Position numbers and translations under genes: made by a program. From Stenotrophomonas maltophilia (GTDB lineage Bacteria > Pseudomonadota > Gammaproteobacteria > Xanthomonadales > Xanthomonadaceae), in NCBI RefSeq assembly GCF_013464915.1, contig NZ_RAVT01000061.1, positions 11 to 33,450 of the forward strand: DNA of 33,440 nt. Direction: 5' to 3'. Of this stretch, positions 1-17,423 are shown one piece after another; the stretch's first letter is position 1, and the number at the start of each line of letters is the position of its first letter. The notes beneath the pieces were generated by a model. The model did not search any database, was not told where the DNA came from, and saw nothing but the letters and a program-made list of their open reading frames with translations.

Positions 1-60
<60 letters not shown>

Positions 61-2218: not shown

Positions 2219-2950
2219 ATGAAACGACTGATCCTGCTCACCGCCTGTACCCTGGCCCTGGCCGCCTGCAGCAACCCTGAGGAAGAGCGCAAGGCGCAGG
2301 AAGCCGCCGCGGCGGCCGTGCAGGCGCAGAAGGAGGCCAAGGCCGAGGACGTCGCCAAGCAGTACGACATGGCCGTAGCCGCGCAGGACTGGGAGCGCGC
2401 GCGCCTGCATGGTGCCTCGCTGCTGGACCAGTACAAGGACACCGCCGCCGCTGAGCGCATCGCGGCCGGTTTCGATGAAGTAAAGGCCAAGGGCGATGCC
2501 GCGCGCGACCTGCGCCGCATGCAGGGGCTGTGGCAGTACAACCAGATTCCGGTCGGCAGCAAGGGCAATCAGGTCTCGGCGCAGATCTACAGCAAGGAAC
2601 GCGTGGACGTGGATGGCAGCGGCGCCAAGCCGGTGCAGCTGGTGTTCCGCGATCATCCGGAGTGGAAGCGGCATGCCTACCTGGTGCTGCAGGCCGGCGA
2701 TTTCCGCTGCCCGCAGTGCACGGTGAAGGTGACAGTGGACGACGGCAAGCCGGTGTCGATGGCCGCCTGGCGGCCAAAGACCGATGAAGCCATTGCGATG
2801 TTCATCACCGACCAGAAGGCGCTGTGGAAGCTGGCGCGCAAGGGCAAGTCGATCAGCATCGAGTTCCCGGTCAAGGCCGGCGGCACGCGCACGGCCGTGT
2901 TCGAGACCGGCGGTGTCGACGCCAGCCGCATGCCGCAGTGGTGGCAGTGA
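2219..2950 (+). CDS. Predicted lipoprotein of unknown function
   Basis: The protein has 243 residues. The N-terminus is a clear lipoprotein signal: MKR, a hydrophobic run, then LAAC with the lipidated Cys near residue 17. A charged Glu/Ala/Lys-rich segment follows (about residues 20-60), probably a helical spacer. The rest is a mixed globular domain with a CPQC pair, which could form a disulfide or bind metal. I do not recognise a named domain. An in-frame ATG at 2141 lies inside the SMAG repeat; the start at 2219 is preferred because it gives the signal peptide at the N-terminus and follows a purine-rich AAGGA. The stop overlaps the start of the HAD gene by one base, so the two are probably translated together. 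Confidence 0.82.
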   Translation: MKRLILLTACTLALAACSNPEEERKAQEAAAAAVQAQKEAKAEDVAKQYDMAVAAQDWERARLHGASLLDQYKDTAAAERIAAGFDEVKAKGDAARDLRRMQGLWQYNQIPVGSKGNQVSAQIYSKERVDVDGSGAKPVQLVFRDHPEWKRHAYLVLQAGDFRCPQCTVKVTVDDGKPVSMAAWRPKTDEAIAMFITDQKALWKLARKGKSISIEFPVKAGGTRTAVFETGGVDASRMPQWWQ

Positions 2951-3573
2951 TGATCGCAACGGGCAGCGCAGTGCACGCGTTGTCCGCGATCCGGCACTGG
3001 GTGTTCGACATGGACGGCACGCTGACGGTAGCCGTGCATGATTTCGCCGCGATCCGCCGCGCACTGCAGATCGCGGCCGAGGAAGACATCCTCGACCATA
3101 TCGCGGCGCTGCCGGAGGCACCGGCGCAGGCCAAGCGGGCCTGGCTGCTGGATCACGAGCGCGCGCTGGCCGAGGACGCGCTACCGGCGCCGGGCGCGGT
3201 GAAGCTGCTGCGCGCGCTGGCGGCCGCGGGCTGCCGGCTGGGCATCCTCACCCGCAACGATCATGCGCTGGCGAAGCTGACGCTGGACGCGATCGGGGTT
3301 GGGGGACTGTTCGACGATGCCGACATCATCGGCCGCGATGAAGCGGTGCCCAAGCCCTCACCGGATGGCCTGCAGCAGCATCTGCGGCGTTGGGGCATCG
3401 GGCCTGCCAAGGCGGTGATGGTCGGTGACCACGCCTACGATCTGGAGTGCGGCCGTGCCGCGGGCACCCACACCGTGCTGGTCAACCTGCCGGAGAACCC
3501 GTGGCCGGGCCATGCCGACTGGCATTTCGCTGATTGCCGCGACCTGTTGGCCGCCTGGCAGCGCAGAGGGTAG
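2950..3573 (+). CDS. HAD-family hydrolase (phosphatase, subfamily IA-like)
   Basis: A 207-residue haloacid dehalogenase-type phosphatase. The nucleophile motif is DMDGTL close to the N-terminus, motif II is the LTRND segment, the motif III Lys is in PKPS, and motif IV is GDHAYD. The helical cap between motif I and II suits small phosphoesters such as phosphoglycolate or sugar phosphates, but the substrate cannot be read from sequence. The frame is open upstream to 2824; the ATG at 2950 is chosen because it sits in a TGATG overlap with the upstream lipoprotein stop and places motif I at the usual distance. The stop TAG is part of the GTAG that begins a REP half-element, so the extreme 3' end coincides with a repeat. 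Confidence 0.88.
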   Translation: MIATGSAVHALSAIRHWVFDMDGTLTVAVHDFAAIRRALQIAAEEDILDHIAALPEAPAQAKRAWLLDHERALAEDALPAPGAVKLLRALAAAGCRLGILTRNDHALAKLTLDAIGVGGLFDDADIIGRDEAVPKPSPDGLQQHLRRWGIGPAKAVMVGDHAYDLECGRAAGTHTVLVNLPENPWPGHADWHFADCRDLLAAWQRRG

Positions 3574-3647
3574 TGCCGGCCGCTGGCCGGCAGTGTCGAC
3601 CAAGGTCGACACCTACCAGGGCACAGCGTGTCGACCAGGGTCGACAC
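3570..3647. repeat. REP half-element plus two GTGTCGACC hairpins
   Basis: A GTAG half-element (3570-3592) with a CCGGC-type palindrome starts at the HAD stop codon. Two near-identical hairpins follow: GTGTCGACC/GGTCGACAC at 3593-3612 and again at 3628-3647, each a perfect 9-bp stem with a 2-nt loop. They lie between converging genes and may act as a bidirectional transcript end, though T tracts are absent. Confidence 0.75.
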
Positions 3648-4786: not shown

Positions 4787-5944
<1,158 letters not shown>

Positions 5945-6065: not shown

Positions 6066-7442
6066 GTGCCGCCCTACGCCGGTCCTCCCGTTGCCTCCCG
6101 ATCCGGTGATGCCGCCAGCCCCCTGCGGTTGCTGGCCTACCTTGCATTGGCCATCACCCTGATCGTCCTTGACGATCAGGCGGGTTGGCTGGCGCGCCTG
6201 CGTGAGCAGGCCAACAGCCTGGTGCAGCCTGTGTGGGCGCTGGCCGGCCTGCCCGGCAAGCTCGGCAACCAGGTCAAGGATTCCGCGGCCAGCCACACCC
6301 AGCTGGTCACCGAGAACCGCGAACTGCGCAACCAGCTGCTGCTGGCCAACGCGCGCCTGACCCGCCTGCAGACCGCCGCGCTGGACAACGCCCAGCTGCG
6401 CGAACTGCTGAACGTGGCCGAGCGCAGTGGCCTGGACGTGCAGCTGGCGCCGATCCTGGATATCGACCTGGATCCGGTGAAGCAGCGCCTGGTGCTCGAC
6501 GCCGGCAGCCGCGAAGGCGTGCATGTCGGCCAGGCGGTGATCGATGCCGGTGGCCTGATGGGGCAGGTGATCAGCGTCACCGGCGGCACCTCCACCGTGC
6601 TGCTGCTGACCGACCCCGACCACGCGGTGCCGGTCACCGTGGCCCGCAACGGCGTACGCCTGATCGTCTACGGCCGCGGTGACAAACTGGAACTGCGCGA
6701 CATCCCGCTCAGCGCCGGCGTGGAAGTGGGGGATGAGATCGTCACCTCCGGCCTCGGCGGCCGCTTCCCGGCCGGCTTCCCGGTCGGCACCATCACCGGC
6801 CTGCGCCCGGACGACACCCATGCCTTCCTGGTCGGTGAACTGAAGCCGGCCGCCCAGCTGGACCGCGGCCGCGATGTGCTGCTGCTGCGCCCGGGTGCGG
6901 CAATTCGCTTGCCGCAGGCAGGCGAATTGCCTCAGCCTGGTTTGCCTTCGGCAAACCAGGCTGCCGGGGGGGCATCCCACCTTACCCCCGCGCCTTCGGC
7001 GCGCGCCCCTCAACAAGAGGGGGGCTCCACCCCAGCCAGCTCTACGGTAGTGCCGGCCGCTGGCCGGCAACAGCCCTCGTCGCAAACGAGGACTGTTGCC
7101 CCCGCATCCTCCCTTGACCCCGCGCCGTTGGCGCGCCCCCTTGAGCCGACTGCACCTTCGGCGCAACCGGCCCGCGCATCCTCCCTTACCCCCGCGCCTT
7201 CGGCGCGCCCCCCTCGACAAGAGGGGGGCTCTCCCCCAGCCGGCTCCACGGTAGTGCCGGTAGTGCCGGCCGCTGGCCGGCAACAGCCCTCGTCGCAAAC
7301 GAGGACTGTTGCCCCCGCATCCTCCCTTAACCCCGCGCCGTTGGCGCGCCCCCTTGAACAACAAGGGGGCTCCACCCCAGCCAGCTCTACGGTAGTGCCG
7401 GCCGCTGGCCGGCAACCGACCACGCCGGAGGCACAGCGATGA
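6066..7442 (+). CDS. mreC: Rod shape-determining protein MreC with repeat-encoded tail
   Basis: MreC links cytoplasmic MreB to periplasmic PBP2. The 458-residue product has a transmembrane helix at about residues 20-40, a coiled coil at about 70-115, and the beta-domain core ending near residue 275. Family members are usually 280-370 residues, so the protein is long. Residues 279-458 form a low-complexity Pro/Ala/Ser/Gly tail encoded almost wholly by palindromic repeats, including three SMAG half-elements that each translate as VVPAAGR. The frame stays open through all of them. The start is GTG at 6066, which sits just before the conserved N-terminal region. The stop overlaps mreD (ATGA). The tail should be periplasmic and probably disordered. 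Confidence 0.93.
   Translation: MPPYAGPPVASRSGDAASPLRLLAYLALAITLIVLDDQAGWLARLREQANSLVQPVWALAGLPGKLGNQVKDSAASHTQLVTENRELRNQLLLANARLTRLQTAALDNAQLRELLNVAERSGLDVQLAPILDIDLDPVKQRLVLDAGSREGVHVGQAVIDAGGLMGQVISVTGGTSTVLLLTDPDHAVPVTVARNGVRLIVYGRGDKLELRDIPLSAGVEVGDEIVTSGLGGRFPAGFPVGTITGLRPDDTHAFLVGELKPAAQLDRGRDVLLLRPGAAIRLPQAGELPQPGLPSANQAAGGASHLTPAPSARAPQQEGGSTPASSTVVPAAGRQQPSSQTRTVAPASSLDPAPLARPLEPTAPSAQPARASSLTPAPSARPPRQEGGSPPAGSTVVPVVPAAGRQQPSSQTRTVAPASSLNPAPLARPLEQQGGSTPASSTVVPAAGRQPTTPEAQR
6900..6963. repeat. Two adjacent hairpins inside mreC
   Basis: The first is GCAATTCGC (6900-6908) with GCGAATTGC (6922-6930). The second is a perfect 14-bp stem, CAGCCTGGTTTGCC (6933-6946) with its complement at 6950-6963 and a TTC loop. 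They mark the junction where the conserved MreC core ends and the repeat tail begins. Confidence 0.85.
6969..7428. repeat. Tandem hairpin/SMAG modules within the mreC 3' end
   Basis: Three related units lie near 6969-7115, 7188-7328 and 7329-7428, with a shortened variant at 7116-7187. A full unit carries GCGCC-TTC-GGCGC, a CCTC/GAGG hairpin, a GTAG half-element with the CCGGCCGCTGGCCGG palindrome (7047-7069, 7260-7282, 7392-7414), and a CAACAG/CTGTTG hairpin. The second unit has an extra 9-nt GTAGTGCCG duplication at 7251. Reading frame is kept throughout. Confidence 0.85.
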
Positions 7443-7924
7443 GCCGCCTGCGCGACAACCCGTGGGTATTGCCGGCCAGCCTGGTGGTGGCCCTGCTGCT
7501 GGGCCTGCTGCCGCTGCCGGCGCTGCTGCAGCCACTGCGCCCGTACTGGCTGGCGCTGGTGCTGGCGTACTGGGTGATCGAGACGCCCGAGCGCGTCGGC
7601 CTGGGCATCGCTTTCGCCAGCGGCGTCATCGCCGACCTGCTGTACGGCGGCGTGCTCGGTGAACAGTCGCTGCGGCTGGTGATGCTGGCCTTCATCCTGC
7701 AGCGCTTCCGCGCCCGTATCCGCTTCTTCCCGATGTCGCAGCAGATGCTGGCCATCGGCGGCCTGCTGTTCAACGACCGCATCGTCAGCGCGCTGGTGCA
7801 TATCCTGGTGGGCGAGCCGACCCTGCCGTGGTCGTACTGGTGGGCGCCGCTGCTGGGCATGGGCCTGTGGCCGCTGGTATTCGTGCTGCTGGACGCGGTG
7901 CGCTTCGGCAAGCGCGGGCGCTGA
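7439..7924 (+). CDS. mreD: Rod shape-determining protein MreD
   Basis: A 161-residue, highly hydrophobic inner-membrane protein with about five predicted membrane segments, the usual size and character of MreD. It works with MreC in the elongasome and affects activation of PBP2 and RodA. The ATG overlaps the mreC stop by ATGA, and mrdA begins 3 nt after its stop, so the block is tightly coupled. The sequence keeps the central GVIADLLYGGVLGE region typical of the family. Assignment rests on both sequence and position. Confidence 0.94.
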   Translation: MSRLRDNPWVLPASLVVALLLGLLPLPALLQPLRPYWLALVLAYWVIETPERVGLGIAFASGVIADLLYGGVLGEQSLRLVMLAFILQRFRARIRFFPMSQQMLAIGGLLFNDRIVSALVHILVGEPTLPWSYWWAPLLGMGLWPLVFVLLDAVRFGKRGR

Positions 7925-17175: not shown

Positions 17176-17249
17176 GTAGTGCCGGCCGCTGGCCGGCTCC
17201 CCATGAACCCATCCGGAGATGGCAGCAGCCGGCCAGCGGCCGGCACTAC
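17176..17249. repeat. SMAG-type GTAG palindromic repeat pair
   Basis: Half-elements with the CCGGCCGCTGGCCGG palindrome run from GTAG (17176) to CTAC (17249), between dacC and the converging LpxR-like gene. Confidence 0.9.
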
Positions 17250-17250
17250 C

Positions 17251-17423
17251 CTCAGCCCCTCGCTTACAGCGAGCGATGCAATAGCCGGTGTGCCGACCAA
17301 CGGTCGGCACCTACCCGCTTCACCCTCAGCCCCTCGCTTACAGCGAGCGATGCAATAACCGGTGTGCCGACCAACGGTCGGCACCTACCCGCTTCACCCT
17401 CAGCCCCTCGCTTACAGCGAGCG
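17251..17423. repeat. 74-bp tandem repeat reaching into the lpxR-like 3' end
   Basis: Two nearly identical 74-bp units (17251-17324, 17325-17398; one visible difference, AATAG versus AATAA) are followed by a 25-bp partial unit (17399-17423). Each unit has a CTCGCT/AGCGAG hairpin and a GTGCCGACC/GGTCGGCAC hairpin. The partial unit contains the stop codon (17412-17414) and last three codons of the minus-strand gene. Confidence 0.88.

What the first reader, a model, noticed from the sequence alone, without database searches (positions are those of the whole stretch)
6900..7439. MreC tail of 180 residues encoded by tandem palindromic repeats
The conserved MreC core stops near residue 278. The remaining 180 residues are read through two hairpins and three tandem hairpin modules, each including an intergenic-type SMAG half-element that translates as VVPAAGR. 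The frame remains open and the mreD ATGA overlap is kept. It looks as if non-coding repeats were turned into a Pro/Ala/Ser periplasmic tail on an essential elongasome protein. Unit number could vary between strains and alter MreC length.
Basis: partly seen in the sequence, partly recalled or inferred. Interest (0 to 1): 0.72.

Follow-up and report, generated by a model that had tools for sequence, protein, structure and literature searches.

The report
Genomic repeats built MreC's protein tail
In this group of bacteria the cell-shape protein MreC ends in a long, probably floppy tail whose gene is assembled, always in a readable frame, from short repeats that normally lie between genes, so the tail differs widely between species while the rest of the protein hardly changes.

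Summary
After the MreC core (Pfam barrel to residue 274) the window's mreC runs on for 183 codons through two hairpins, four GC-rich hairpin elements and three exact copies of the published 23-nt SMAG repeat, keeping the ATGA overlap with mreD. In the 89 of 91 genus genomes used, the core is conserved but the tail is not: 32-183 residues in 88 intact tails, the window's the longest. 58 of 89 tails carry forward SMAG-type repeats; all 89 forward copies sit in one phase (VVPAAGR-type), 4 reverse copies in one other. For SMAG these are the only two of five open frames without Cys or aromatic residues; the 88 tails hold 5 such residues in 7,731. A second hairpin element always has the 3-nt loop that keeps the frame open. 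The mreD overlap is kept in 88 of 88. Tail type shows no signal on the core tree. Two related genera build tails partly from heptamer repeats. Best reading: a loosely constrained tail, anchored by mreD's ribosome-binding site, takes up genomic repeats that pass a filter of frame and composition. Known kind (repeats inside ORFs), unusual variant; translation and function of the tail are untested.

The parts
6066..7442 (+). mreC ORF (458 aa, mechanical GTG start)
   Evidence: the ORF before it (4814-5944) is MreB by eye, not by a family search
6066..6890 (+). conserved MreC core (to VLLLR, residue 275); codon-usage signal ends about here
   Evidence: Pfam PF04085 residues 133-274; invariant columns to R275 in 32 aligned species; codon-usage segment ends at L012:2328, about residue 276
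6891..7439 (+). hypervariable tail, 183 codons
6890..6940 (+). first hairpin (imperfect 24-nt arms)
   Evidence: I1
6933..6963 (+). second hairpin (14 of 14 bp), reads QPGLPSANQAAGG; this peptide type found in 10 of 89 tails, 10 changes on the core tree
   Evidence: I6
6986..7025 (+). GC-rich double hairpin element, copy 1, reads PAPSARAPQQEGG
7118..7139 (+). GC-rich hairpin element, copy 2, not followed by a SMAG
7190..7229 (+). GC-rich double hairpin element, copy 3
7331..7371 (+). GC-rich double hairpin element, copy 4
7047..7069 (+). SMAG copy 1 (exact published consensus), reads VVPAAGR
7251..7282 (+). 9-nt SMAG stub (7251-7259) and SMAG copy 2 (7260-7282)
7392..7414 (+). SMAG copy 3; ends 24 nt before the mreD start
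7068..7098 (+). linker hairpin CAACAGCCCTCGTC..GACTGTTG, copy 1
7281..7311 (+). linker hairpin, copy 2
7427..7431 (+). GGAGG, likely Shine-Dalgarno of mreD, inside the last mreC codons
   Evidence: SD-like word at this place in 72 of 88 intact species, against 0-8 of 88 at eight other offsets
7439..7442 (+). ATGA overlap: mreD start and mreC stop
   Evidence: ATGA in 85 and GTGA in 3 of 88
7439..7924 (+). mreD
   Evidence: Pfam PF04093

Best explanation
MreC in this genus ends in a loosely constrained, probably disordered periplasmic tail whose coding DNA is a landing strip for the lineage's own intergenic repeats. The junction has two fixed points: the end of the conserved core, and a short last stretch that carries mreD's Shine-Dalgarno and the ATGA stop/start, so mreD translation is probably coupled to mreC (inferred from the sequence). 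Between them, REP units (SMAGs) and other hairpin repeats are gained, copied in tandem, exchanged and lost (turnover is shown by comparison; the routes, and insertion by RAYT transposases, are inferred). The variants seen keep the frame to the ATGA and read as peptides nearly free of Cys and aromatic residues (the pattern is shown; selection as its cause is inferred). The tail probably serves as a spacer of free sequence and loose length; REP content adds no essential function (inferred).
For: MreC core in 91 of 91 genomes, 69-100% identical in the rows with a full match; the tail ranges over 32-183 aa in 88 intact species. All 89 forward GTAG-REP copies in 58 of 89 tails are in one phase; 4 reverse copies in 3 tails share one other phase. 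For SMAG these two of five open frames alone lack C/F/W/Y; for all six REP forms used, the forward phase is clean, and the only other clean frame, in 5 of 6, is that same reverse one. 5 C/F/W/Y among 7,731 tail residues, against 4.33% in nucleotide shuffles, 1.68% in codon-position shuffles and 6.2-10.9% in the other five frames. The CGCGCC-loop-GGCGCG element has a 3-nt loop in 37 of 37 mreC matches; of 9 places outside mreC in the window's genome 7 have 4 nt, which puts TGA in frame. ATGA/GTGA kept in 88 of 88, SD-like word in 72 of 88 (elsewhere 0-8). Median tail 90 aa with and 86.5 aa without REPs. Tail-root type needs 14 changes on the core tree, 30 shuffles 13-16; two distant species share a tail start 95.8% alike with cores 88.8% alike. 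Pooled pN/pS 0.47 in tails, 0.07 in cores. 20 sampled SMAG loci (24 copies): none in a codon-usage coding segment, none an in-frame 3' extension. Six Y1-transposase matches in the genome.
Against: The copies share ancestry, so 89 of 89 is not 89 independent events; REP presence changes at least 11 times on the tree, and gains cannot be told from losses. Five of the 7 four-nt loops lie in two tandem arrays at contig ends, so they are not independent either. Hairpin stems in mreC are at least as intact (77 of 89 perfect) as other copies (12 of 16 and 6 of 12), which also fits a kept nucleic-acid function or recent origin. No proteomic or ribosome-profiling data. One genome (L088) has lost the frame. 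The structure model was too poor to test disorder. Alignable tail pairs were picked for at least 60% identity, which lowers pN/pS.
Confidence: 0.7

Rival explanations
1. The repeats are kept for an RNA- or DNA-level job at the mreC-mreD junction (hairpins that protect mRNA or set the MreC:MreD ratio), and their translation is a tolerated by-product.
For: Strong folding of the window's tail, z -10.4. In the last up to 150 nt before mreD, 29 of 58 REP tails have z below -2, against 1 of 58 for a core stretch of the same genes. The last REP ends 24 nt before mreD in 29 of 58 species. Stems are well kept (77 of 89). In the four relatives' tails printed outside the genus, heptamer repeats stand in opposite orientations towards the two ends of the tail.
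Against: 30 of 88 intact tails have no REP and mostly no structure there (median z -0.37, 3 of 30 below -2, core control 4 of 30). The distance of the last REP to mreD ranges from 18 to 99 nt. A pairing of the terminal SMAG arm with early mreD codons, seen in the window, is missing in 15 of 32 species with a REP that close. An RNA role does not explain the near absence of Cys and aromatic residues.
Confidence: 0.17
2. The repeated peptides form a functional, selected tail (for example a length-tunable tether towards peptidoglycan or partner proteins), with unit number as the adaptive variable.
For: Frame and composition are strictly kept; REP number varies from 0 to 6 per tail; tails with and without REPs are Pro/Ala-rich.
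Against: No shared tail sequence beyond the repeats by eye, and no invariant column after R275 among 32 species (one nearly invariant P310); tail type has no phylogenetic signal; pN/pS 0.47; 31 of 89 tails hold no REP; similar median length with and without REPs.
Confidence: 0.09
3. Assembly artefact: the unit number in the window is wrong.
For: The genome is in 114 contigs, and some listed SMAG places in it carry N in the loop or lie at contig ends.
Against: No N in the window's mreC. Multi-unit tails occur in genomes held as one contig: 126, 132, 151 and 159 aa in G090, G038, G068 and G040. The longest near-identical repeat is about 100 nt, short enough for ordinary reads (inference).
Confidence: 0.04

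Closest known systems
SMAG / GTAG-tagged REP elements (PMC2613905, PMC3733652)
   Same: Exact consensus, GTAG tag, hundreds of copies, tandem arrays with flanking DNA that vary between strains; REPs inside ORFs are reported, including tRNA pseudouridine synthase A and B genes of S. maltophilia.
   Different: Here such repeats make up part of the C-terminus of one gene in 58 of 89 species of a genus, in one phase. No word beginning with mre stands in the main text of PMC3733652; its additional files were not read. None of the 24 MLVA primers of PMC2613905 matches the window or the 90 mreC loci with up to 3 mismatches.
Rickettsia palindromic elements (RPE-1 and others) in protein genes
   Same: Palindromic repeats within conserved protein genes; PMC3733652 (section 15 read) cites expression in vivo of RPE-1-decorated proteins.
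   Different: RPEs are found in many genes; here the same C-terminal site is refilled again and again by several repeat families, with an RBS anchor behind it. No RPE paper itself was opened (listing only).
GGGAATC-type heptamer repeats of Xanthomonas (PMC4692102)
   Same: Heptamer-type hexamers stand in the mreC tails of two related genera (12 of 12 loci of g18, one of them with a single hit; 2 of 2 of g7).
   Different: The paper calls them mainly intergenic, 7-11% overlapping ORFs; its main text holds no word beginning with mre.
MreC proteins of solved structure (PDB 7eft, 6zlv, 6zm0, 2j5u, 9dvb, 2qf4)
   Same: Same core family.
   Different: 5 of the 6 matched sequences align only up to core residue 246-276; 7eft aligns to residue 371. 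Whether tails are visible in any of them was not examined.

Membership tests
SMAG (GTAG REP) | 23-nt consensus with GTAG tag and palindrome | tested here: met
   three exact copies
SMAG (GTAG REP) | high copy number in the genome | tested here: met
   190 + 200 places, control 0
SMAG (GTAG REP) | extragenic location | tested here: not met
   these copies lie inside mreC; 0 of 24 sampled copies elsewhere lie in a codon-usage coding segment
SMAG (GTAG REP) | RAYT transposase in the genome | tested here: inconclusive
   6 PF01797 matches over the cut-off; RAYT-specific motifs not checked
MreC | MreC barrel domain | tested here: met
   PF04085, E 3.5e-40
MreC | gene order mreB-mreC-mreD | tested here: met
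   MreD by Pfam; MreB by eye only from the ORF at 4814-5944
Protein-coding palindromic elements (RPE-like) | palindrome in frame in a conserved gene, absent from some relatives | tested here: met
   31 of 89 species have no REP in mreC
Protein-coding palindromic elements (RPE-like) | insert present in the mature protein | not testable with these tools
   needs proteomics
Contingency / VNTR locus | unit number varies between strains of one species | not tested
   the genomes searched are one per species

The most novel reading that the evidence does not exclude
The mreC 3' end in Xanthomonadaceae is a recurrent protein-birth site: whatever repeat family dominates a lineage (SMAG REPs in Stenotrophomonas, heptamer repeats in some related genera) is turned in frame into the periplasmic tail of an essential elongasome protein, and recombination between units changes MreC length within a species, with effects on cell-wall growth.
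Probability: 0.15. Interest if true: 0.8.

Novelty: new variant of a known kind. Interest (0 to 1): 0.56.

Why it matters
It is a clear natural case of non-coding repeats becoming protein sequence in a core cell-shape gene, seen in many species at once, so that the rules of what is tolerated can be read off: the frame must reach the mreD start, and the peptide avoids Cys and aromatic residues. It makes testable how disordered tails are born and how REP elements pass into genes. It also offers a possible typing locus, and a caution for annotation and for constructs of MreC.

Tried and rejected
Rfam search of the window: 0 matches. AlphaFold with a 32-row alignment: mean pLDDT 51.6, the barrel itself poorly predicted; no secondary structure assigned after residue 263, but this is no test of disorder. 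RNA pairing of the terminal SMAG arm with mreD codons: present in the window, not general. A hairpin before mreD as a general requirement: not seen in most REP-free tails. MLVA loci of PMC2613905: none is mreC by primer match. A long ORF elsewhere in the genome with tail-like sequence (L102) is, by inspection, convergent intergenic sequence beside a threonine-dehydrogenase-like gene (gene recognised by eye). An attempt to place the lost frame of L088 was inconclusive, because its tail is too different from its sister's. A looser hairpin scan gave a few extra hits (L088, L097, L037, L039, and one more reverse REP-like hairpin in L074) that are not in the counts. Paper searches on MreC tails gave no paper on this subject in their listings; two listed papers that hold 'mrec' were opened at those passages: an ethics committee's initials and a reference title. 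The other listed papers were not opened.

Full report
What is there. The window's mreC (6066-7442) encodes 458 aa. The Pfam MreC barrel covers residues 133-274, and in an alignment of 32 species the invariant columns end at R275. Codon-usage signal also stops there (control row L012). The remaining 183 codons run through two hairpins (6890-6940, 6933-6963), four GC-rich CCCCGCGCC hairpin elements (6986, 7118, 7190, 7331), two linker hairpins (7068, 7281) and three exact SMAGs (7047, 7260, 7392) with a 9-nt stub at 7251. SMAG is the published S. maltophilia repeat GTAGTGCCGGCCGCTGGCCGGCA (PMC2613905: abstract and section 4 part 1 read). The genome has 390 places of a SMAG-type pattern and 0 of the control.

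The genus. MreC was found in 91 of 91 genomes. I used 89: G054 holds a fragment, G067 lies at a contig edge and was not fetched, and a second copy in G008 (L100), at the other end of the same contig, was dropped from the counts. One genome (L088) has lost the tail frame; 88 tails are intact, 32-183 residues long, median 89, the window's being the longest. In all 88 the stop overlaps the mreD start (ATGA 85, GTGA 3), and in 72 an SD-like word of 4-5 letters lies in the last codons, 61 of them with a 5-letter word; the same search at eight other offsets upstream gives 0-8 of 88. The species nearest in core DNA (96.5, 96.4 and 96.2% identical) have tails of 101, 91 and 118 residues of different make-up. 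A species with an identical core protein over 279 residues (L011) has a different 93-residue tail.

The frame rule. Allowing 4 mismatches to six REP consensus forms, I found 89 forward copies in 58 of 89 tails, all in phase 0, and 4 reverse copies in 3 tails, all in one phase. Controls: 0 hits in 20 rounds of codon-shuffled tails and 0 in the 88 cores. SMAG has five open frames; VVPAAGR (forward) and AGQRPAL (reverse) alone contain no Cys or aromatic residue, and these are the two used. For all six forms the forward phase used is clean, and the only other clean frame, in five of six, is the same reverse one. Translating each of the 89 copies in its other frames gives a clean reading in 87 for that reverse frame but only in 0-9 for each of the other four. 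The GC-rich element has one clean frame among its four open ones, and that is the one used; the linker hairpin has two clean frames, and one is used. The GC-rich element has a 3-nt loop in 37 of 37 mreC matches, whereas 7 of the 9 places outside mreC in the window's genome have the 4-nt TGTC, which by my reading puts TGA in frame; 5 of these 7 belong to two tandem arrays at contig ends. The 88 tails contain 5 C/F/W/Y in 7,731 residues; nucleotide shuffles give 4.33%, shuffles within codon positions 1.68%, and the other five frames 6.2-10.9%. Tails without REPs (30) share the Pro/Ala-rich make-up, so the composition does not come from the repeats alone.

How it changes. On the core tree REP presence changes at least 11 times, and the tail-root type (16 of 89 tips, assigned by me) changes 14 times, against 13-16 for 30 shuffles of the labels. 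In 12 of 91 pairs of one tail type the tail start is more alike than the core; for example L031 and L050 are 95.8% against 88.8%. 38 REP copies in 24 species are letter-for-letter SMAG, although the cores of those species average 80% identity at third positions. Together this means turnover by recent insertion, conversion, tandem duplication or exchange; I cannot apportion these. pN/pS is 0.47 in alignable tails and 0.07 in cores over 234 pairs chosen for at least 60% tail identity.

Is mreC special? The tail as a protein query finds no second intact coding match in the window's genome: 4 matches at E up to 10, of which one is mreC, two contain a stop, and one is intergenic by inspection. Of 20 SMAG loci chosen from the first 100 listed of 390 places (24 copies), 16 copies lie outside any gene frame and 8 in open frame upstream of a gene's coding segment; none lies within a coding segment or as an in-frame 3' extension. 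This is a simple codon-usage caller trained on seven window genes, and the sample is small; PMC3733652 reports some REPs inside ORFs of S. maltophilia, so mreC is not alone in the genus.

Beyond the genus. Of 247 family genomes searched (13 of them of the genus), 238 matched; I fetched 20 more loci, chosen for long frames or other genera. 19 of 20 keep the 4-nt mreD overlap; L123 does not. 12 of 12 loci of one genus (g18), and both of another (g7), hold heptamer-type hexamers in the tail (L110 a single one; 10 of the 12 and both g7 loci in both orientations); in the cores of the 20 there are two hits in all. Three such genomes have 273, 361 and 395 places of a three-unit pattern, against 27-35 in the control; the fourth genome searched, one of the window's genus (G081), has 0. 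These fit the G-rich repeats described for Xanthomonas (PMC4692102: abstract and passages seen); calling g18 Xanthomonas is my inference. Six of the 20 loci, from other genera, have tails without such repeats.

Mechanism. Shown by sequence: fixed ends, variable middle, the frame and composition pattern, turnover. Inferred: translation coupling of mreD through ATGA, disorder and periplasmic place of the tail, REP insertion by RAYT-type enzymes (6 PF01797 matches), selection as the cause of the pattern. That MreC is essential is general knowledge, not tested here. The RNA rival is real: the tail folds strongly (z -10.4), stems are intact in 77 of 89 copies, against 12 of 16 and 6 of 12 elsewhere, and half of the REP tails show structure before mreD (29 of 58; core control 1 of 58). 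But most REP-free species do without it (3 of 30; core control 4 of 30), so it is unlikely to be a general need.

Literature. REPs inside ORFs are known and have been proposed to be neutral where they sit in flexible parts (PMC3733652: abstract, section 15 and the first part of the discussion read). That paper has no word beginning with mre in its main text; its additional files were not read. PMC3686654 and PMC2817692 (passages only) hold none either. Searches whose listings showed no paper on MreC tails of this kind; two listed papers with 'mrec' were checked and are unrelated. The library lacks most subscription papers, so this is no proof of absence.

Verdict. A real and interesting variant of a known kind: a repeat-fed tail on a core cell-shape protein, with a rule of frame and composition.

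Noticed in passing
window 17248-17423: 74-nt tandem repeat, 2.4 copies, 99% matches, each unit with a REP-like palindrome (GTGCCGACCAACGGTCGGCAC); looks like an ordinary SMAG-type array, a possible typing locus.
   Followed up: no
window 3570-3592: A single forward SMAG whose GTAG tag supplies the TAG stop codon (3571-3573) of the ORF at 2824-3573, a habit of GTAG REPs noted in PMC3733652.
   Followed up: no
window 23338 and 23383: A pair of SMAG-type repeats in opposite orientation.
   Followed up: no
window 3-31: Run of 29 C at the very start of the window, close to the contig start; possibly an assembly artefact.
   Followed up: no
L002 and L004 (ends of contigs C3 and C10 of the window's genome): 67-nt tandem units of the same GC-rich hairpin element with a 4-nt loop at both contig ends; the two contigs may adjoin in the genome.
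   Followed up: partly
L088 (G002): The only one of 89 genomes used in which the mreC frame is lost before the mreD start; the ORF runs on to 653 aa. Sequencing error or real, not settled.
   Followed up: partly
L057 and L100 (G008): mreC occurs near both ends of one 4.49-Mb contig with the same tail; probably an untrimmed circular overlap.
   Followed up: no
L069 and L073: Tails with six and five REP units at 33-42 nt spacing (VVPGSARQPQP-type), a simpler tandem array than the window's.
   Followed up: partly
L114 (G153:C1:943177-943203): A heptamer repeat also lies just upstream of mreC in this relative, on the other strand.
   Followed up: no
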